Positions 3 through 10,093 of a DNA stretch of 64,000 nt are shown piece by piece. This stretch comes from Plantactinospora sp. BC1. Lineage in GTDB: Bacteria; Actinomycetota; Actinomycetes; Mycobacteriales; Micromonosporaceae. Within the stretch, counting starts at the first letter, position 1. The number at the start of each line of letters is the position of its first letter. The position numbers were made by a program, and so were the translations under genes. Under the pieces are notes generated by a model. It was not told the DNA's origin. It searched no databases and saw nothing but the letters and a program-made list of their open reading frames with translations. The stretch covers positions 2,728,001 to 2,792,000 of the forward strand of contig NZ_CP028158.1 of assembly GCF_003030345.1 (NCBI RefSeq), written 5' to 3'.

Positions 3-578
3 GAGCAACTCGCCCGGTCGTCCCGCAGAGGGCACTGGCCCCGCCTCGGACAGGTCGAAGGCGCTGACGAAAGCGGCCTGGTGTACTTCGCGGTCGACGA
101 CGAGGGCGTGTTCGTGACGGCGCAAATCGATCAGCGGTGGTGGCAGGAACTCGGGGTCGCCGGGCTACCCGTCGCGCTCCGGGAGGCCCAGCGCAACGCG
201 TACGCCAAGTTGAGTGTCGCCCGGCTCGTCTTCCGGCGACTGGTCGGGCCGCCACCGTCCGCCTCGGCCGGGTCCTTCGAGTCGAGGCACGGGCTCTCCC
301 GGACCACAGACGCGTCGGAGCTGCTCAACTCGTGGCGGACCACGACAGCTGAGTCGTATCAGCGCATCTACGAGTACGAGCGCCGGTCGGCTGCACATGC
401 CAGAGCCGAGCCGACGGTGGTCAGCGGGCCGGACGGGCTCGTCCAACTCACCTTCGAAAAGGGCATGATCGCCGACGTCAAGCTGACCTCGTGGCGTCTC
501 TCCGAGCACTCGACCGATCAACTCGTCGCCGACATCCGAGCGGCGCTCCGCGAACACGGGGGAATGGCACATGGGTGA
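3..578 (+). CDS. YbaB/EbfC-like protein (5' end outside window)
   Basis: The reading frame is open to the left edge, so the true start lies upstream; a GTG at 81 could start it but the codons before it already read as protein. The visible ~190 residues hold two similar modules, each a beta-hairpin followed by an alpha helix: one around VYFAVDDEGVFVTAQI and one around GLVQLTFEKGMIADVKL near the C terminus. That second module matches the YbaB/EbfC nucleoid-associated fold. In actinomycetes such proteins commonly sit beside WXG100 genes of ESX-type loci, as here: its stop overlaps the start of the next gene by 8 nt. Function in secretion is not established; DNA binding is possible but unproven. 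Confidence 0.7.
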   Translation, partial: EQLARSSRRGHWPRLGQVEGADESGLVYFAVDDEGVFVTAQIDQRWWQELGVAGLPVALREAQRNAYAKLSVARLVFRRLVGPPPSASAGSFESRHGLSRTTDASELLNSWRTTTAESYQRIYEYERRSAAHARAEPTVVSGPDGLVQLTFEKGMIADVKLTSWRLSEHSTDQLVADIRAALREHGGMAHG

Positions 579-930
579 TTTCGAGTACTACGATTCGAAC
601 ATTCTCCGGGTTGCGGGCGACGCGATCCGCGAAGAGGCCGCGAAGTGGGACAAGATGTCCGGCGACATGGCGAACGTCGCGGGCGCGACAAAGCAACTGT
701 GGCTGACTCCGGTTGCCTTCGCTGTCGCCGATCCCTGGGCTGGACCAGCGGTGGCCATCGATGACTTTGCGATCTACAACGACGTCCACAAGCTGCTCTG
801 CTCGCTGCTCGACGGCGCGGCCACCGAGTTCGGCCAGCTCGGCGACGCGCTGCGCACGATGGCTGGGGAGTACGAGAAGTCGGACGAGCGGAGCTACATC
901 AACATCAGCAAGATCTACAAGGCTGAGTAG
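571..930 (+). CDS. WXG100-like ESX-type protein
   Basis: A 119-residue, mostly helical protein without signal peptide or membrane segment. Its size and helix-turn-helix hairpin character fit the WXG100/ESX superfamily exported by type VII secretion, although the turn reads LWLTPVAF rather than a clean WxG, so it is a divergent member. The C-terminal tail YEKSDERSYINISKIY is where ESX substrates carry the YxxxD/E signal; YEKSDE contains Y-x-x-x-D. The ATG overlaps the preceding stop, and the next gene starts 28 nt downstream, indicating one transcript. Known for the family: secreted as helical dimers; here the partner would most likely be the next gene product. Confidence 0.65.
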   Translation: MGDFEYYDSNILRVAGDAIREEAAKWDKMSGDMANVAGATKQLWLTPVAFAVADPWAGPAVAIDDFAIYNDVHKLLCSLLDGAATEFGQLGDALRTMAGEYEKSDERSYINISKIYKAE

Positions 931-958: not shown

Positions 959-1819
959 GTGGCCCCATCGACGGTACCGCTGCCCACTCCGGAAGAGGCT
1001 GGCGCGATCCTGGGGACGTTCCGCACCAACAAAGAACTCTTCAGTACCCTGCTCGAACAGGTCGAGCGGGAGTGGGACAACCTCTGCCGAGAAGTCGACG
1101 CAATGCTGCGCAGAGGCGAGCACGCCGTCAACAGCGACAGCGCATGGAGTAGCTTCACAGGCTGGATTGCCGACATCAATCCGTTCCAAGAAGCCCTCGT
1201 GGAAATTTTGGAGGACATCCGAAAAGCGTTCGAGGAGGTACGCAAGGCGGTCGACAAGCTGTTCCCGATGATCCGCCTGGTTGTCGAGCGGTCGGCGCCG
1301 GTGCTCTCGCTCTGCGAGCACAGCCTGAGCTACCTCTCGCAAGTGTTCGGCCCGCTCGGCGACCTCTATACGTCTTCGGGCAGTCTGGTGCCGGATGCTG
1401 TCTATTGGGGCGGGCCGACGAAGGAACACTATGTGCAGTCGGTGGTGGCCGACCAGAAGAACGCACTGGACCGGGTCACCGACCACGTCGAGGGTGTCAG
1501 CACCTGGCTGGCCCAGACGGCGGCGAAGAACACCGATTACATGGTGACGATCGTGCACAATCTCAGTCCAATCCCCAACGCGCTTACCGCAGCCGCCGCG
1601 AACGTGGCGGTGGCGACGGTGGACTTCGTTTCCGCGTTCTGGGCCATCGACAACCTGGCACAGACACTCGGCAACACCGTTCAGGCCGTTCTGGACCAGA
1701 CCGCGGACCTGTTCGGCTTCCTTGTCAACGCCGTGGCCGGAATCCAGGAACTGACCGTGATCAAGACGGATCGGCGTGACCTCGCTGGCGGCAAGTGGCC
1801 GCAGTCGGTCGTGGGCTGA
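959..1819 (+). CDS. long WXG100-like helical protein
   Basis: GTG at 959 is chosen because it follows an AGAGAGGA ribosome-binding site and the protein composition begins here; this gives 286 residues. The protein is helical throughout, with a predicted amphipathic N-terminal region (residues 10-80) and a WGGP turn near residue 145 followed by a second helix pair, an arrangement like the WXG100 or LXG-type long effectors. Alanine/valine-rich segments around residues 200-260 could contact membrane but no clean transmembrane helix is visible. No toxin domain is recognised. It lies between the short WXG protein and the mycosin-like gene, which starts 2 nt after its stop. Confidence 0.65.
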   Translation: MAPSTVPLPTPEEAGAILGTFRTNKELFSTLLEQVEREWDNLCREVDAMLRRGEHAVNSDSAWSSFTGWIADINPFQEALVEILEDIRKAFEEVRKAVDKLFPMIRLVVERSAPVLSLCEHSLSYLSQVFGPLGDLYTSSGSLVPDAVYWGGPTKEHYVQSVVADQKNALDRVTDHVEGVSTWLAQTAAKNTDYMVTIVHNLSPIPNALTAAAANVAVATVDFVSAFWAIDNLAQTLGNTVQAVLDQTADLFGFLVNAVAGIQELTVIKTDRRDLAGGKWPQSVVG

Positions 1820-1821
1820 CG

Positions 1822-3744
1822 ATGGTGTACGGCTGGAGTACGCGGCTGGCCTCCGCCGCCCTGGCCGGCATGGCCGGCACCGCCCTGAGCCTGTTCGGCG
1901 GTGTCGCCGGCAATGCTCATGTTGGGGGGAAGCCGGGGGATGCCTGGCATGTCGCGGCGTTGAATCTCGCCGCAGCACACCAGCAGTCCCGGGGTGCTGG
2001 GGTAACCGTCGCGATGGTCGACAGCCGCGTCGAGCCGCATCGTGACCTGCGGGGCGCGTTGTTGCCCCCCATCGACGTAGCACCGTCCGGCACTCGCGAC
2101 GGCGCGGCCCGAGGCACCCAACTCGCTGGCCTCGTCGCTGCCCGGGGCGACGGACGCACCAGTCTGCTCGGCGTCGCCCCCGAGGCCAGAATCCTTCCGG
2201 TCCGGGTAAGCGGTCGGGGTTTCGACGCAGACCCCGACGCCGTCGCGGCGGGGATCGAACGCGCGGTGGCCGGCGGTGCCGACGTGGTCGTCTCCACGTA
2301 CAGCCGGCCCGGGGTCACGGATCCGCTCGCCGGGGCGGTCCGCCGGGCGATCGCCTCGAACGTCGTGGTGGTCGCACCCGCCGCGCCAGGATCGCCGAAC
2401 GCGCAGACCCTCGCCGATCTGCCCGGAGTGGTTGCTGTGGTGGGCACCGATCAGGAGGGCCGGCCGCTGCGGGACTCCGTGCGGGGACTGAGCCTGGACG
2501 TCGCGGCGCCCGGTGACGAACTGGTGGCGCCGGTGCACACGAGCCTCGGCGATGCATACACGGAGGTCGGTGGAGCGGACTACGCCGCTGCCCTGGTCGG
2601 CGGGGTCGCGGCGCTCGTACGGTCGAAGTACCCGCAACTGTCCGGCGCGGATGTGGCGCGTCGGTTCATCGATGATGCGCAGCGGGACCTGGCCCTCGGC
2701 TGGGGCGTCGTCAACGCGGCGGAGGCCCTCACGCGGACGCCCGTCGAGTTGCCGGCAGCGCGTACCGCCGCAGCGGACTCGGGTGTTGGTCGGCTGCCGC
2801 GGGACCGGCAGTGGTACCTGGACGCCCTGGCGGTGGGGGACGCCCATCGGATCACCCGGGGCGATGGAGGCACGCTGGGCCTGGTCGCCGCAAGGATCGA
2901 CACGGACCGGCCGGATCTGGCGGGTCGGCTGGACCGGCAGGTCGGGATAGACGCGCAGGGTGACATCGGTGACCTGCCGGGCGGGGCCGCGCGGCCCACC
3001 GACACCGCCGCCGCTGTGCTCGCCGGAGGCGCGGGCGGTACGGGATATCTCGGCGTCGCTCCGGCGGCTCGGCTGATCGCAGCCGGCGGCGGGCCCAAGC
3101 CTGGGCGGGCTCAGGTGGAAGCGGCCGTACGGTGGCTGGTCGACGACGGCGCGGGAGTGGTGCTGGTGGTCGACGGCGTGGAGGAGCTCAGCGCGGCCGC
3201 GGTCGCCTACGCCCTGGCCCGTGACACCGTCGTCGTGGCGCCGCAAGCCGGCTATCCGTCGGGCGTCCCCGGCGTGATCACCGTGCGCGGCGTCCAGCAG
3301 CGTGAGCCGCCGGTCTCCGAGCCGGCGCCGATCCTCGCGGCCCCCGGTGAAGTCAACCTGATGCTCGGCACCGATCACGCGGCCTCCGCCGCGTCGGACA
3401 TCTCGGCGGCGGCGCTGGTGGCCGGAGTTGTCACCCTGGTTCGGGCTCGAAACCCGGAGGCGGACGCCGAGAACGTCATCCAAAGGGTCCTGTCCACCGC
3501 GACGGCCGTCGAGGTCGAACCGTCGCCGTACGGACGGGGCCTCGTCAACCCGGTGGCGGCACTGACCGCCGATGTTCCGCCCGTCACCAGCAACCCGCTC
3601 GGGGATCCCGGAGATCCGGCGGACGACCCCGGGGACGCCCGGCGGCTGTGGCTTGTCGTGGGCATCGCGGTGGCGGCGGGCCTGGTGCTCCTGGTCGTCG
3701 GCCTAACGGCCGGGATGCTGTACCGGCGGCGGCGTCCCCGGTGA
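1822..3744 (+). CDS. tandem subtilisin-fold mycosin-like protein, probable pseudoprotease
   Basis: 640 residues from ATG 1822 (an in-frame GTG at 1795 would overlap the previous gene). N-terminal signal peptide, then two peptidase S8 folds (about residues 40-310 and 330-590), a Pro/Asp-rich linker, one transmembrane helix near residues 609-634 and a short basic tail. This is the topology of MycP proteases of type VII systems. The first domain keeps the catalytic-type Asp (D67, AMVDS) but the His motif reads ARGTQLAG (R97) and the Ser motif GADYAAA (D253); the oxyanion Asn is also absent. The second domain has no His at PTDTAAAVLAG and Ile527-Ser528 where the nucleophile motif should be. A structural, non-proteolytic role is therefore inferred; MycP proteins are known to stabilise ESX membrane complexes independently of proteolysis. 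Confidence 0.75.
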   Translation: MVYGWSTRLASAALAGMAGTALSLFGGVAGNAHVGGKPGDAWHVAALNLAAAHQQSRGAGVTVAMVDSRVEPHRDLRGALLPPIDVAPSGTRDGAARGTQLAGLVAARGDGRTSLLGVAPEARILPVRVSGRGFDADPDAVAAGIERAVAGGADVVVSTYSRPGVTDPLAGAVRRAIASNVVVVAPAAPGSPNAQTLADLPGVVAVVGTDQEGRPLRDSVRGLSLDVAAPGDELVAPVHTSLGDAYTEVGGADYAAALVGGVAALVRSKYPQLSGADVARRFIDDAQRDLALGWGVVNAAEALTRTPVELPAARTAAADSGVGRLPRDRQWYLDALAVGDAHRITRGDGGTLGLVAARIDTDRPDLAGRLDRQVGIDAQGDIGDLPGGAARPTDTAAAVLAGGAGGTGYLGVAPAARLIAAGGGPKPGRAQVEAAVRWLVDDGAGVVLVVDGVEELSAAAVAYALARDTVVVAPQAGYPSGVPGVITVRGVQQREPPVSEPAPILAAPGEVNLMLGTDHAASAASDISAAALVAGVVTLVRARNPEADAENVIQRVLSTATAVEVEPSPYGRGLVNPVAALTADVPPVTSNPLGDPGDPADDPGDARRLWLVVGIAVAAGLVLLVVGLTAGMLYRRRRPR

Positions 3745-3981
3745 TCCCGGGTGGTACCCCCGACGGAGATACACCCGACGGCCGTCGTCCGCGAAGTTGA
3801 CAACCCGCCAGCCCTGGGCCTCGAGCAACTCGGCTGCGGCCATCGTGGTCTCCAGATTGTGCGCCCCCGCCGTGCCGGGGTTGTCGACGCAGACGAACGT
3901 CAGCGGATAACTGTGCAGTCGGACCTGCCCGGAGAGGATGTCCCCGGCCTTGAACCATCGAGGCGGCGCCGGCATCATCAT
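3703..3981 (-). CDS. conserved hypothetical protein, 92 aa
   Basis: Small soluble protein of unknown function. ATG 3981 is chosen over a GTG at 4002 because a TATCCT hexamer lies exactly 6 nt before it, as expected for a leaderless transcript. The body reads as a compact alpha/beta domain (VRLHSYPLTFVCVDNPG, then an amphipathic helix MAAAELLEAQGWRVV and a beta strand) ending in a proline-rich tail. The 3' end overlaps the end of the mycosin-like gene by 42 nt in convergent orientation, so the last dozen residues may be less constrained. No family recognised. Confidence 0.6.
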   Translation of the reverse strand: MMMPAPPRWFKAGDILSGQVRLHSYPLTFVCVDNPGTAGAHNLETTMAAAELLEAQGWRVVNFADDGRRVYLRRGYHPGSPGTPPPVQHPGR

Positions 3982-5794: not shown

Positions 5795-5860
5795 CCCGGC
5801 CGTGCGGTTCGCCAGTCCCACGGCGGAGCGGCAGCTCACTCCTTGTCCGATTCAAGGCCA

Positions 5861-5866
5861 TATACT
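5861..5866 (+). promoter_or_regulatory. -10 box TATACT of a leaderless promoter
   Basis: TATACT ends 6 nt before GTG 5873. No Shine-Dalgarno is present, and the signal-peptide start coincides with the expected +1. Confidence 0.55.
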
Positions 5867-5872
5867 CCGTCC

Positions 5873-6415
5873 GTGAGATGTTTGAGGACCTTAGGGGGAA
5901 TTATTCTCCTGTCGGGTGCCGTTCCAGCGGTTCTGCCGGCCGAGCCGGCCGCCGCTGCTACGTTCGTGGTTTCCCGGCTGCGGCAGACCGACCTGTCGAT
6001 CACGGTCCCGGCGACGGCCAGCCTCGGGGCCGGTCTGCCCGGCGCCACCCTCAGCCGCCGGCTCGGCGTGGTCACCGTGCGGGACAGCCGGCCGATCAAC
6101 CCGAACACCTGGACGGTGACGGTGACCTCGACGCCGTTCATCACCGGTTCCGGTTCGGCGGCGCAGACCATCCCCACCAGCCGGGTGTCGTACTGGTCCG
6201 GCCCGGCCACCCGGCACACCGGGGGCGGCAACCTGGTGCCCGGTCAGCTAACCAGCGCGCAGGCGCAGACGTTGACGGTGCCTCGCATCGCGTTCCGGAA
6301 GACCTCCGGCAACGCCAACAATCGGGTGAGCTGGATGCCGACCCTGGTGGTCAGTATTCCGTCGGGCGCGGTCGTCGGCCTCTACCGAGGTACGGTCACG
6401 CATTCCGTTTCCTGA
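5873..6415 (+). CDS. secreted WxL-like domain protein (paralogue 1)
   Basis: 180 residues from GTG 5873 (a TTG at 5843 would add 10 residues before the signal peptide and overlap the promoter). Signal peptide ends near PAAAA. The mature all-beta domain carries the TWTVTVTSTPF segment, the tract SYWSGPA, a second Trp in SWMPTLVVSIP, and ends GLYRGTVTHSVS. Trp-x-(Leu/Val) segments in an Ig-like sheet plus the DUF916 gene two positions downstream resemble WxL proteins, which bind peptidoglycan noncovalently and partner with WxLIP proteins. The next gene encodes a paralogue of identical length; the pair arose by tandem duplication. Surface localisation is inferred. Confidence 0.7.
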   Translation: MRCLRTLGGIILLSGAVPAVLPAEPAAAATFVVSRLRQTDLSITVPATASLGAGLPGATLSRRLGVVTVRDSRPINPNTWTVTVTSTPFITGSGSAAQTIPTSRVSYWSGPATRHTGGGNLVPGQLTSAQAQTLTVPRIAFRKTSGNANNRVSWMPTLVVSIPSGAVVGLYRGTVTHSVS

Positions 6416-6478
6416 CCGCCGCGTCCATGCTCCTGCCAGTCTGGCGTCGAATGCCCTATTTAGACGGCTTTGGTGTGT

Positions 6479-6485
6479 TACAACT
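6479..6485 (+). promoter_or_regulatory. -10-like TACAACT of a leaderless promoter
   Basis: TACAACT ends 5 nt before ATG 6491 and occupies the same place, followed by the same CC, as TATACT before the paralogue at 5873. No Shine-Dalgarno is visible. The hexamer is a weaker match than its partner. Confidence 0.35.
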
Positions 6486-6490
6486 CCTAC

Positions 6491-7033
6491 ATGAAGAAGA
6501 TGCTCGCGCCCACGTTCTGCCTCGCCGCAGCCACCCTGTTGATCGCCACGCCGGCAGCGGCCCAGCCGTCCGCAGACACCATCGTGACGTTCACCGTCGC
6601 CACGGCCAACCTCACCATCGAGGCGCCCGCCGCGGTCAACCTCGGCTCGGCCTTCCCCGGGCAACGCCTGAGCGGACAGTTGGGCACCGTGACCGTCCGT
6701 GACCAGCGGGCTGCCGCGAACGCCACCTGGACCGCCTCGGTCGTCTCCAGCGAGTTCCGCACCGGTGACGGCGACCCCGGGCAGATCATCCAGCCACAAC
6801 TGGTCGAGTACTGGTCCGGGCCGGCGACCTCCACGACCGGCACCGGCACCTTCGTTCCCGGCCAGCCCACCGAGGCGGACCGGGTCAGCCTCAGCGTGCC
6901 CCGCACGGCCTTCGCCAAGACCTCCGGCAGCGGCAACAACTCCGCCAGCTGGAACCCGACGTTGGTGATCAACATCCCGCCCGACGCGGTCGGCGGCCTG
7001 TACACCGGGACGGTAACCCATTCTGTGTCGTAA
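6491..7033 (+). CDS. secreted WxL-like domain protein (paralogue 2)
   Basis: 180 residues from ATG 6491; the MKKMLAPTFCLAAATLLIA signal peptide with AAAQ cleavage region begins exactly here, so the in-frame GTG at 6470 is rejected. Aligns along its whole length with paralogue 1: TVTVRDQR, TWTASVVSSEF, EYWSGPAT, SWNPTLVINIP and the identical ending TGTVTHSVS. It keeps the second Trp but has W-x-A in place of W-x-V at the first. Probably exported and held at the cell surface by the membrane-anchored DUF916 protein encoded next, whose coding frame overlaps this gene's end. Confidence 0.7.
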   Translation: MKKMLAPTFCLAAATLLIATPAAAQPSADTIVTFTVATANLTIEAPAAVNLGSAFPGQRLSGQLGTVTVRDQRAAANATWTASVVSSEFRTGDGDPGQIIQPQLVEYWSGPATSTTGTGTFVPGQPTEADRVSLSVPRTAFAKTSGSGNNSASWNPTLVINIPPDAVGGLYTGTVTHSVS

Positions 7034-8072
7034 CCGGCGGTCCCTGGCGGGCTGCGCCCTCACCCTCGCCGTACTCGTGCTGGCGGGAGCGCCCGGCGCC
7101 GCCGCCGACCCGTCCCCACCGGCCGCGTCCACGGCCCCGCAGGTAGGGGTGAGCGTCCGGCTGCTCGACGCGCCGGTGAACCGGCGCGAGGACAGCCGCG
7201 CCTACCACTACATCGTCGACCACGTGAAGCCTGGCACCACGGTCCGCCGCCGGATCGTCGTCTCCAGCGCCTCGGAGATCCGCCGCGAGGTCGCCGTCTA
7301 TCCGGCGGCGGCCACCGTCGACAAGGCCACCTGGGTCGTCGCCCCCGATCGGACCGCGAACGAGCTGTCCAGTTGGGTGACCGTGGACCGCAACCGCCTC
7401 GACCTCGATCCCGACGAACGGGCGACGGTGTGGACCACGATCAGGGTCCCCGAGGACGCCGCGGCCGGGGAACGCTATGCCGTGCTCTGGGCGCAGACCG
7501 CCGGTCTCGCCGACTCCACCGTGCGGCACATCGGCCGGGCCGGGATCCGGATCTACCTCTCCGTCGGTCCCGGGGGCGAACCAGCGTCCGACTTCACCAT
7601 CACCGACCTGACCGGCACCCGGGCCCCCGACGGCACCGCCACGCTCACCGCCTCGGTGACCAACACCGGCAAGCGGGCCCTCGACCTCGACGGCACACTC
7701 CAGCTCAAGGACGGACCGGACAACCTCAACAGTGGCCCGTTCAAGGTCGAGGCACCCACCCTCGCCCTCGGCGCCACCGCGACCGTGCAGGTGCCGATCG
7801 GCCGGAACACCCCGGACGGCCCGTGGACCGCCAAGCTGGAACTGGCCAGCGGCTGGACCAGGCGTACCGCCACCGGCCAGGTGACCTTCGCCCGTCCCGG
7901 CGCCGTGGCCAAACCGGCCGACCGGAGCCGTACCGTCCTGCTCGCCGGCCTGGCCGGGTCCGCGATCGTGCTGGCCCTGCTCGTCGGCTACGCCGTCCAC
8001 CAGCGCCGGCACGGCGACCGGCCGGTGACGCTCCGGACCCGGGTCCTGGCCCGGCACGCCTCCCGGAAGTAG
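7023..8072 (+). CDS. WxLIP-like (DUF916) membrane-anchored surface protein
   Basis: The first ~150 mature residues (SVRLLDAP, HVKPGTTVRRRIVVSS, then WVTVDRNRLDLDPDERATV and the turn PEDAAAGERYAVLWAQT) match the WxL-interacting-protein peptidoglycan-binding domain. A second Ig-like domain follows (DFTITDLTGT to the GWTRRTATGQVTF strand), then one transmembrane helix (TVLLAGLAGSAIVLALLVGY) and a basic tail. A standard GTG at 7077 would remove the signal peptide; codons from 7023 read LCRNRRSLAGCALTLAVLVL, a perfect one, so I place the start at CTG 7023 (or ATT 7020), inside the preceding gene, translationally coupled. In low-GC Gram-positives such proteins anchor WxL proteins; the two upstream genes are the likely partners. 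Confidence 0.7.
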   Translation: MCRNRRSLAGCALTLAVLVLAGAPGAAADPSPPAASTAPQVGVSVRLLDAPVNRREDSRAYHYIVDHVKPGTTVRRRIVVSSASEIRREVAVYPAAATVDKATWVVAPDRTANELSSWVTVDRNRLDLDPDERATVWTTIRVPEDAAAGERYAVLWAQTAGLADSTVRHIGRAGIRIYLSVGPGGEPASDFTITDLTGTRAPDGTATLTASVTNTGKRALDLDGTLQLKDGPDNLNSGPFKVEAPTLALGATATVQVPIGRNTPDGPWTAKLELASGWTRRTATGQVTFARPGAVAKPADRSRTVLLAGLAGSAIVLALLVGYAVHQRRHGDRPVTLRTRVLARHASRK

Positions 8073-8146: not shown

Positions 8147-8242
8147 CCGAGGAGTACGACGATCTGAGGAACGACAACCGCGGAGTACGACAATCCACGG
8201 CGCGACGGTCCGCGGAACGACGATCCGAGGAGTACGACGATG
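8147..8242 (+). repeat. tandem array of ribosome-binding-site-like units
   Basis: Six degenerate 15-17 nt copies of CCGAGGAGTACGACGAT run head to tail; the last contains the GAGGAG Shine-Dalgarno and the ATG of the phosphoesterase gene at 8240. Copies 1 and 6 are nearly identical; the middle ones vary at the GAGGAG core (GAGGAA, GCGGAG, GGCGCG, GCGGAA). Confidence 0.75.
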
Positions 8243-10093
8243 GAACAGAACCCGAGCCGGCGCGGGTTCCTCCAGGGCGCCGGACTGGTCGGGGCCGGGA
8301 TGGTCAGCGGCGTCACCACCGGGGCGCTGCTGCCGGCCGCCACCCTCGCCTGGCAGCGGGTCGACGCCGACGAGCCGGCTCCGGACACCGGCTCGCCCCG
8401 GTTCACCCTCGCCGTCATCCCGGACACCCAGTACCTCTTCGACGGCGAGCGGGGCGACAGCGCGCCGCTCGCCGCGACGCTGCGCTGGCTCGTGGCGCAC
8501 CGGGCGGAGCGGAACATCGTCCTCACCGCCCACCTCGGCGACATCGTCGAGAACGGAGCCGCCGCCGAGCTGGCCGAGGCGGGCCGGGTCTTCGGGATCC
8601 TCGACCGACACCGGATGCCGTACAGCGTGCTGGCCGGCAACCACGACGTCGACGCCTCCACCACCGACCAGCGTGGACCGAGCCCCTACCTGGAGGTCTT
8701 CGGACCGCACCGGTCATGCCGGCTGCCGACGTACGGCGGCGGCACGCCGGACGGCTACAACACGTACCACGTCTTCACCGCCGCCGGACGCGAGTGGCTG
8801 CTGCTGGCGCTGGACTGGCGACCGTCGGACGCCACGCTCGACTGGGCGCGGTCGGTGCTGGCGGCGCATCCGACCAGCCCGGCGATCCTGACCACCCACG
8901 ACCTGGCCGACGCCGACCACGCCGGTGCCACCTGGCTCTCCGGGCACGGCCAGCGGCTCTGGGACCGGCTCGTCAGGGACAGTGACCAGATCTTCCTCAC
9001 CCTCAACGGGCACTACTGGCCGCCGGGACGCACCGTGCTGCGCAACAGCGCCGGCCGGGACGTGCAGGTGCACATCGCCAACTACCAGGACCGCTACTAC
9101 GGCGGCGGCGGGATGCTCCGGCTCTACTCGTTCGACCTGGCCCGGAACACGATCGACGTCGAGACGCTCTCGCCGTGGATCCTCGGCCAGCCGGCGCAGC
9201 GGCGCAATGTGCTGGCCCGGCGGGAGGTCGAGCTGACCGACCCGGCCAACCGGTTCAGCCTGGCGATCGACTTCGCCGACCGGTTCGCCGGCTTCGCCCC
9301 GGTCGCCCGCCGCGCACCGCGCGGGCCGGCCGCCGTGGTCGGTGACGGCGTCGTCGCGTACTGGCGGTTCGACCAGGGGCGGGACGGTGCGGCGGTACCG
9401 GACGGCCACCGAATCGAGGATCTCTCCGGCCGGGGCAACCACCTGACCCGGCTCAGCCTGCCCGGTGGCCGGCCGGAGGCGCTGCGCTGGTCGACCGAGC
9501 ACCACGACGACCAGCCGGCACACGCCAGCCTCTTCTTCTCCGGCGGCCGGCAGGCGACCCCGGGCGGCTGTCTGGGTACGGTCGACGGTGCGCCGCTGAA
9601 CACGGCGACGTTCGGGCACGGCTACACGATCGAGGCGTTCGTGAAGCTGCCGGCCGACGTCCGGCAGATCGGCTCGGCCGGGATGGGCATCCTCAGCCGG
9701 TACGGCACCGGCCGGGACGCCGGCAAGACCGGGGCCGACCCGGCGGAGCCGACCGCGCTGCTGGGGCTCTCCGCCGGGATGGCGCTGAAGTGGGCCGTCT
9801 TCCCGGTCGAACTGGACGGCATCGTCGCCAACTGGGGGCACGAGCTGACCGCCGGGGAATGGTTCCACGTCGCGGTGGTGAACGACGGCCGGCTCAGCAC
9901 CCTCTACGTCGACGGCGCACGGCTGCTCCGCAACCCCTCCGTCGCGGCGTCCGGGCTGGCCGCCTCGGGCGACTCGTGGCTGGTCGGGGCGGACCACCGC
10001 GACCGGATTCTGCGGCCGGGCTTCTACGGGTGGATCGGCGACATTCGGATCGCCGACCGTCCGCTGCCGGTCGACCGCTTCCTCCGGGCCTGA
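8240..10093 (+). CDS. Tat-exported metallophosphoesterase with C-terminal LamG domain
   Basis: 617 residues. N terminus SRRGFLQGAG is a twin-arginine signal. The calcineurin-like phosphoesterase domain (about residues 55-320) shows the ordered metal ligands: VIPDTQY, HLGDIVENG, AGNHDVD, TTHD and NGHYW. After a linker, residues ~370-617 form a concanavalin/LamG-like beta sandwich starting VVAYWRFDQG and ending YGWIGDIRIADRPL, a likely carbohydrate-binding module. The enzyme would act outside the membrane on a phosphoester substrate that cannot be named from sequence. The start is fixed by the repeat-embedded Shine-Dalgarno. It follows the WxL-like surface genes on the same strand, separated by 167 nt, and ends at a strong hairpin. 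Confidence 0.85.
   Translation: MEQNPSRRGFLQGAGLVGAGMVSGVTTGALLPAATLAWQRVDADEPAPDTGSPRFTLAVIPDTQYLFDGERGDSAPLAATLRWLVAHRAERNIVLTAHLGDIVENGAAAELAEAGRVFGILDRHRMPYSVLAGNHDVDASTTDQRGPSPYLEVFGPHRSCRLPTYGGGTPDGYNTYHVFTAAGREWLLLALDWRPSDATLDWARSVLAAHPTSPAILTTHDLADADHAGATWLSGHGQRLWDRLVRDSDQIFLTLNGHYWPPGRTVLRNSAGRDVQVHIANYQDRYYGGGGMLRLYSFDLARNTIDVETLSPWILGQPAQRRNVLARREVELTDPANRFSLAIDFADRFAGFAPVARRAPRGPAAVVGDGVVAYWRFDQGRDGAAVPDGHRIEDLSGRGNHLTRLSLPGGRPEALRWSTEHHDDQPAHASLFFSGGRQATPGGCLGTVDGAPLNTATFGHGYTIEAFVKLPADVRQIGSAGMGILSRYGTGRDAGKTGADPAEPTALLGLSAGMALKWAVFPVELDGIVANWGHELTAGEWFHVAVVNDGRLSTLYVDGARLLRNPSVAASGLAASGDSWLVGADHRDRILRPGFYGWIGDIRIADRPLPVDRFLRA

What the first reader, a model, noticed from the sequence alone, without database searches (positions are those of the whole stretch)
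1822..3744. Tandem mycosin-like protein with both catalytic sites lost
Two S8 folds in one chain, MycP-like signal peptide and C-terminal anchor. Domain 1 has R97 and D253 where His and Ser should be and lacks the oxyanion Asn; domain 2 has no His and Ile-Ser at the nucleophile position. Single-domain MycP is already known to have a non-proteolytic scaffold role, so a duplicated, doubly dead version would be a dedicated structural component.
Basis: partly seen in the sequence, partly recalled or inferred. Interest (0 to 1): 0.7.

Follow-up and report, generated by a model that had tools for sequence, protein, structure and literature searches.

The report
Fused dead mycosins in secretion cassette
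This gene makes a protein, probably anchored in the membrane, built from two subtilisin-type domains that have both lost their protease residues; dead relatives sit in the same small secretion-related gene group, so the protein probably binds rather than cuts, although some close relatives have lost it.

Summary
Window 1822-3744 (+) encodes 640 aa with two mycosin-type S8 domains and a C-terminal helix; neither domain keeps a triad. Domain 1 has Asp67, Arg97 (for His), Pro189 (for Asn), Asp253 (for Ser). Domain 2 has none; its nucleophile position is Ile527.

It is not an internal duplication. Domain 2 falls in a clade with nine single-domain dead mycosins of the same cassette from other genomes. 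Domain 1 nests among active mycosins. So two lineages were fused, both inactive.

The cassette is YbaB-like, EspC-like, WXG helical protein, slot 4, plus a small gene. Of 90 cassettes read, 12 carry a mycosin in slot 4 (10 are the seeds, chosen for it; 2 of the other 80); all 12 are dead. 17 carry a DUF3558-like lipoprotein instead. dN/dS against G036 is 0.31.

Against a vital role: the full-length dead tandem was found in 3 of 354 family genomes; a same-genus genome shows only a stop-bearing remnant; G110, a close relative of G109, has it deleted. The only EccB found lies 1.6 Mb away.

Best reading: a non-cleaving, anchored binding partner for the cassette's WXG proteins (binding untested). 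New variant of a known kind.

The parts
81..578 (+). First gene: YbaB/EbfC-like protein
   Evidence: Homologous to the first gene of the other seed cassettes; no Pfam hit for the window copy; its L085 counterpart hits PF02575 at E 1.5e-4, below cut-off
571..930 (+). Second gene: EspC-like small helical protein
   Evidence: PF10824 EspC E 0.024, below cut-off; homologues in all ten seed cassettes, the window's own counted
959..1819 (+). Third gene: ~286 aa helical protein with invariant W-x-G and C-terminal WPQ-x-V, the cassette marker used for the census
   Evidence: Alignment A2 of 10 rows; search of 354 genomes; WXG100 only weakly by profile
1822..3744 (+). Fourth gene: tandem pseudomycosin, 640 aa, likely signal peptide, two S8 domains, C-terminal helix likely in the membrane
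1939..2736 (+). Domain 1 (about residues 40-305), nested among active mycosins; Asp67 codon 2020-2022, Arg97 codon 2110-2112, Asp253 codon 2578-2580
2797..3576 (+). Domain 2 (about residues 326-585), in the pseudomycosin clade; Ile527 codon 3400-3402 at the nucleophile position
3628..3729 (+). C-terminal helix (residues 603-636), likely transmembrane, followed by an Arg-rich end
   Evidence: DSSP on the model and sequence
3703..3981 (-). Convergent small gene (~90 aa) of the cassette, overlapping the end of the tandem gene by 42 bases
   Evidence: Homologues in 8 of the 10 seed cassettes, the window's own counted; profile hit in 57 of 90 cassettes, many of them weak; no Pfam match

Best explanation
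It is a doubly dead pseudomycosin of an orphan type VII-related cassette. Sec exports it (inferred from the signal peptide) and the C-terminal helix holds it in the membrane with both S8 domains outside the cytoplasm (inferred). The EspC-like and WXG proteins leave through the ESX machine encoded elsewhere in the genome (inferred). The S8 clefts bind them or their tails without cutting, so that they are docked, held or presented at the cell surface instead of being processed (inferred). Shown here: two S8 domains, loss of both triads, a recurrent cassette, a clade of dead relatives, two separate origins of the domains, and purifying selection between the window and G036.
For: No triad in any of the 12 slot-4 mycosins found, 15 domains. 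Nine single-domain dead relatives and the three domain 2 copies form one clade, 100/99 support. The gene order YbaB-like, EspC-like, WXG, slot 4 recurs. Slot 4 holds a DUF3558-like protein in 17 of 90 cassettes and an ORF with a lipobox-like motif in 38 of the 76 cassettes without any mycosin hit, some doubtful, so the slot seems to call for an anchored outer protein, not a protease. dN/dS 0.31 against G036, 0.21 for the WXG gene. MycP1 cleaves EspB, and its proteolysis is dispensable for secretion (passages of PMC5082899). Precedents for dead peptidase domains as binding or signal partners: CspA and CspC (passages of PMC12880746) and inactive transglutaminase domains proposed to anchor toxins by binding peptides (passages of PMC3482391).
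Against: No binding was tested. The full-length dead tandem is rare (3 of 354 genomes) and can be lost: remnant in G001, deletion in G110, no mycosin in G078's cassette. On a quick tree of 80 WXG proteins the mycosin label needs four changes, so WXG protein and pseudomycosin have not simply travelled together. 10 of the 12 cassettes with a mycosin were chosen for having one; of the 80 fetched by the WXG marker only 2 have it. dN/dS against G109 is 0.58. Slot 4 of about half of the other cassettes is unassigned.
Confidence: 0.45

Rival explanations
1. One reading: an alternative, non-proteolytic mycosin that caps and stabilises the EccB chamber of the ESX membrane complex, as MycP5 does.
For: A MycP5 trimer stabilises the ESX-5 complex through EccB5, and the active site is not needed for secretion (passages of PMC8131196 and PMC5082899). 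The protein keeps a mycosin-like N-terminus and a C-terminal helix.
Against: Only one EccB found in the genome, 1.6 Mb away, with an active mycosin about 1 kb from it. Slot 4 is held by unrelated DUF3558-like proteins in 17 of 90 cassettes. Remnant or deleted in relatives. Two domains per chain would not obviously fit a three-MycP cap (inference).
Confidence: 0.22
2. Accessory dying out: a once useful mycosin that lost catalysis and now drifts, with fold stability kept for a while.
For: Stop-bearing remnant in G001, deletion in G110, no full-length match in the other six genomes of the genus; dN/dS against G109 is 0.58, tail 1.32.
Against: Open 640-codon frame; no triad in three genera; dN/dS 0.18 for domain 1 against G036; a clade of dead single-domain relatives with conserved motifs, from four genera (genus codes).
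Confidence: 0.18
3. Decoy or regulator: the dead domains compete with active mycosins for substrate or in mixed trimers and so protect the cassette's WXG proteins from cleavage.
For: The genome has three other mycosins over the TIGR03921 cut-off, all with D-H-N-S; domain 1 lies among active mycosins; inactive MycP1 raises ESX-1 secretion (passages of PMC5082899).
Against: No link to a particular active mycosin was sought; none of the 90 cassettes read showed an active mycosin in slot 4 (L179 is cut about 0.9 kb after the WXG gene).
Confidence: 0.1

Closest known systems
Mycosin MycP of ESX type VII secretion (TIGR03921; MycP1, MycP3, MycP5)
   Same: S8 fold, likely signal peptide, N-terminal extension, C-terminal helix; a non-proteolytic role is known for MycP1 and MycP5 (passages of PMC5082899, PMC8131196)
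   Different: Two domains in one chain; no triad in either; below the TIGR03921 cut-off; not next to EccB
Single-domain pseudomycosins of the same cassette (found here in unnamed family genomes)
   Same: Same slot, same cassette, same clade as domain 2, no triad
   Different: One domain only; different residues at the dead positions
CspBA, CspA and CspC of Clostridioides difficile (passages of PMC12880746)
   Same: A bacterial fusion of two subtilases with a dead domain; pseudoproteases acting as binding and signal partners
   Different: Spore germination; the fusion is cut apart; CspB is active; no mycosin features
DUF3558 proteins (PF12079)
   Same: Fill the same fourth slot of sister cassettes; the four tested have a lipobox-like start
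   Different: No similarity to S8 by these profiles; matches are below the Pfam cut-off
EspL, EspC and EspB of mycobacterial ESX-1 (recalled; PMC6319747 seen only in a search listing)
   Same: YbaB-like, EspC-like and WXG-type proteins in one neighbourhood, with a mycosin
   Different: Weak or absent profile matches; no machine gene found in this cassette

Membership tests
Peptidase S8 fold (PF00082) | Profile match above gathering score, subtilase fold | tested here: met
   92.1 bits against 21.8, two stretches; fold search
Active S8 peptidase | Asp-His-Ser triad with oxyanion Asn | tested here: not met
   Domain 1 D-R-P-D, domain 2 A-P-gap-I
Mycosin equivalog (TIGR03921) | Score over the curated cut-off of 278.75 bits | tested here: not met
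   249.4 bits; orthologues 250.3 and 234.7
Mycosin equivalog (TIGR03921) | Signal peptide and C-terminal membrane helix | tested here: inconclusive
   Both read by eye from the sequence; helix 603-636 in the model; no signal-peptide or membrane predictor was run
ESX core component | Encoded with EccB, EccC and EccD | tested here: not met
   One EccB match in the genome, G000:C1:4366719-4368101; window at 2728001-2792000. EccC and EccD were not searched
ESX core component | Binds and stabilises the EccB chamber | not testable with these tools
   Needs biochemistry
Cassette pseudomycosins (clade defined here) | Groups with the single-domain dead mycosins and sits in slot 4 | tested here: met
   Domain 2 in the 12-row clade, 100/99; position. 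Domain 1 does not belong to that clade
Internal duplication of one mycosin | Domains 1 and 2 are each other's nearest kin | tested here: not met
   They fall in separate, supported parts of the tree

The most novel reading that the evidence does not exclude
Bacteria of this family have built a class of non-cleaving mycosins that stand in for a lipoprotein as the surface-anchored docking partner of orphan type VII substrate cassettes. In the tandem form a second, separately killed mycosin was added, and its active site became an Asp-Arg-Asp charge cluster (D67, R97, D253), a replacement that arose again on its own in another genus (G184: D-R-A-D).
Probability: 0.3. Interest if true: 0.62.

Novelty: new variant of a known kind. 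Interest (0 to 1): 0.45.

Why it matters
Mycosins work both as proteases and as scaffolds. A family that lost the protease part naturally, sits away from the EccB gene and shares its slot with a lipoprotein gives a way to separate substrate binding from cutting and from stabilising the machine. Natural losses in close relatives make the question directly testable.

Tried and rejected
Internal duplication: rejected by the tree. A hidden triad: rejected; none of the 15 domains of the 12 slot-4 proteins has Ser at the nucleophile column. Simple decay of one copy: rejected as the whole story, since two orthologues lack the triad as well, though loss does happen. Phages: no tblastn match at E 1e-5 among 50,697 records. 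Plasmids: 12 records match, none over 80% of the query; of the 8 listed, 5 are annotated as S8 peptidases and 3 have no annotation.

A recurrent Arg/Asp class in genus g24: the G184 protein was searched in 101 genomes. The 19 kin fetched as loci (L195-L213) all read D-H-N-S, so it is a lone case. It suggests convergence on D-R-x-D, not a widespread class.

First model on three rows: too poor to use (mean pLDDT 49.2). Two mixed alignments (A4, A6) misplaced single-domain rows and were not used. Literature, held open-access library only: mycosin with pseudoprotease 0 papers; DUF3558 with type VII secretion 0. Other mycosin searches listed no title or start of abstract on tandem or dead mycosins; most of those papers were seen as listings only.

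Limits: the family searches scored only 3 or 6 candidates per genome, so weak tandems could be missed. The order and class draws (397 and 296 genomes) also hold family members. I fetched the 80 strongest marker places outside the seeds, skipping one partial match (G285); weaker listed places and an unlisted rest were not read. The marker profile was itself built from ten loci that carry dead mycosins. One locus (L179) ends about 0.9 kb after the WXG gene. The WXG tree is a quick one with long branches.

Full report
What is there. The + strand ORF 1822-3744 gives 640 aa. It matches PF00082 twice (92.1 bits, cut-off 21.8) and TIGR03921 mycosin twice, below the curated cut-off (249.4 against 278.75). 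The 60 PDB chains shown by sequence are subtilisins and their kin, with 4kg7 among them, which names MycP3. A model on 16 rows (mean pLDDT 74.7, pTM 0.53) shows two S8 folds and a terminal helix 603-636; Foldseek returns subtilisins and MycP3.

Catalytic residues. Against a profile of one canonical mycosin, domain 1 reads D-R-P-D at the Asp, His, Asn and Ser columns and domain 2 reads A-P-gap-I. Arg97 and Asp253 lie at the first turns of the helices that carry His and Ser in subtilisins (subtilisin recalled). In the G036 orthologue, domain 1 is also D-R-P-D and domain 2 T-A-P-E. In the G109 orthologue the profile gives G-H-L-D and G-H-P-T, while MAFFT aligns the Arg of its domain 1 with Arg97. 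None has Ser at the nucleophile column.

Distribution of the tandem. Three of these (window, G036, G109) match over the full length. The other five match about one domain; one of them, G325, is a different tandem whose first domain is D-H-N-S and second G-S-D-A. Draws of 397 genomes of the order and 296 of the class gave no further full-length match. A genome-contig scan, which reaches close relatives only, confirmed one relative, a Streptomyces mycosin with D-H-N-S.

Origins of the two domains. In a 62-row maximum-likelihood tree the three domain 2 copies group with nine single-domain dead mycosins (12 rows, 100/99). The three domain 1 copies group together inside a 25-row clade (99/92); its other rows are the G325 tandem's two domains and 20 mycosins, 19 of which read D-H-N-S (L142 was not checked). 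So the tandem is a fusion of two lineages that lost catalysis separately. Rows were thinned by hand before the tree, 33 locus ids dropped, among them general subtilases and near-duplicates.

The cassette. The window gene is the fourth of a likely operon: YbaB-like 81-578, EspC-like 571-930, WXG-type helical protein 959-1819, tandem 1822-3744, with a small convergent gene at 3703-3981. The same four genes in the same order were found in nine other loci, which I had picked because they carried a dead mycosin. The small gene varies: downstream and convergent in some, upstream on the same strand in others (L087, L106, L113), not found in L084 and L090. Using the WXG protein as marker, 117 of 354 family genomes hold a match at E <= 1e-8. 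In a draw of 128 genomes of the class only the window's own matched. I read 90 cassettes, the 10 seeds and 80 fetched by the marker. YbaB-like was detected in 84, EspC-like in 88, the small gene in 57. A mycosin lies in slot 4 in 12 of 90 (9 single, 3 tandem): 10 are the seeds and 2 (L115, L117) are among the 80. All 12 proteins, 15 domains, lack the triad. L142 and L149 have a mycosin-type match on the other strand beyond the small gene, and L086 a D-H-N-S subtilase about 4 kb away.

Slot 4 elsewhere. In 17 of 90 cassettes a DUF3558-like protein lies there by a profile built here, 15 on the same strand and 2 on the other. The four tested hit PF12079 at E 8e-7 to 8e-4, all below the cut-off. 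A crude lipobox scan found an ORF in 38 of the 76 cassettes without any mycosin hit, and also in L142 and L149; several of these look doubtful by eye. The rest are unassigned.

Selection and loss. Against G036 dN/dS is 0.31 for the whole, 0.18 for domain 1, 0.36 for domain 2, 0.71 for the tail; the WXG gene has 0.21, EspC-like 0.29, YbaB-like 0.65. Against G109 it is 0.58 (domain 1 0.50, domain 2 0.56, tail 1.32) (Nei-Gojobori). In G001, of the same genus, about 130 C-terminal codons remain, with an in-frame TAG, and the small gene is intact. Only 613 bases precede the remnant on that contig, without cassette genes; no other high-identity match to the tandem was found in G001, a 440-contig assembly. 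G109 and G110 align at mostly 89-95% DNA identity around the cassette (one 273-base piece at 80%). G110 lacks about 1.7 kb, nearly the whole tandem, and about 0.5 kb, most of the YbaB-like gene, but keeps EspC-like, WXG and a piece matching the tandem's tail. G078 has the cassette with no mycosin between WXG and the small gene. On a quick tree of 80 WXG proteins the mycosin label needs four changes.

Place in the genome. The genome has 20 TIGR03921 matches at E <= 0.001, three over the cut-off. EccB was found once, 1.6 Mb from the window, with the D-H-N-S mycosin L001 about 1 kb away. I therefore call the cassette an orphan; EccC and EccD were not searched.

Interpretation. Purifying selection together with loss in relatives points to a useful but dispensable accessory. 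Sharing a slot with an unrelated lipoprotein points to an anchored outer protein. Dead clefts point to binding without cutting. MycP1 cuts EspB and MycP5 caps the EccB5 chamber (passages of PMC5082899 and PMC8131196), so both a docking and a scaffold role can be imagined; I prefer docking for the reasons above. Dead and fused subtilases have a bacterial precedent in CspBA and CspC (passages of PMC12880746). A survey of toxin systems proposes inactive peptidase domains as peptide-binding anchors and notes one mycosin-like neighbour (passages of PMC3482391). A paper on type VII variants (passages of PMC11217815) showed no dead or tandem mycosin in the passages seen.

The charge cluster. D67, R97 and D253 occur together in the window and G036. 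The G184 protein reads D-R-A-D in another part of the tree, and 19 of 19 fetched kin keep D-H-N-S. Two origins of one pattern are suggestive only; no contact distance was measured, and the G184 place in the tree has mixed support (100/52).

Noticed in passing
L078 / L104 (G325:C87), ORF of 756 aa: A different tandem mycosin, first domain D-H-N-S, second G-S-D-A; its two domains are sisters in the tree (100/98), so this one looks like an internal duplication with one half killed.
   Followed up: partly
L103 5754-7166 + (G184): A single-domain mycosin with D-R-A-D at the catalytic columns, facing a D-H-N-S mycosin on the other strand; 19 of 19 fetched kin read D-H-N-S.
   Followed up: yes
L033 (G005:C12): A mycosin reading D-H-D-A, Ser lost to Ala, in a genome of the same genus as the window.
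   Followed up: no
window 3703-3981 -: A ~90 aa protein with no Pfam match that accompanies many of the cassettes, convergent or upstream; intact in G001 although the tandem is a remnant there.
   Followed up: partly
window 5843-8072 +: Three consecutive exported-looking proteins with no Pfam match at E 0.01; by eye they resemble WxL-type surface proteins with a DUF916-like partner (recalled, not tested).
   Followed up: partly
window 8240-10093 +: Metallophosphoesterase and LamG-like domains in one protein, with a weak Tat-signal match below cut-off.
   Followed up: no
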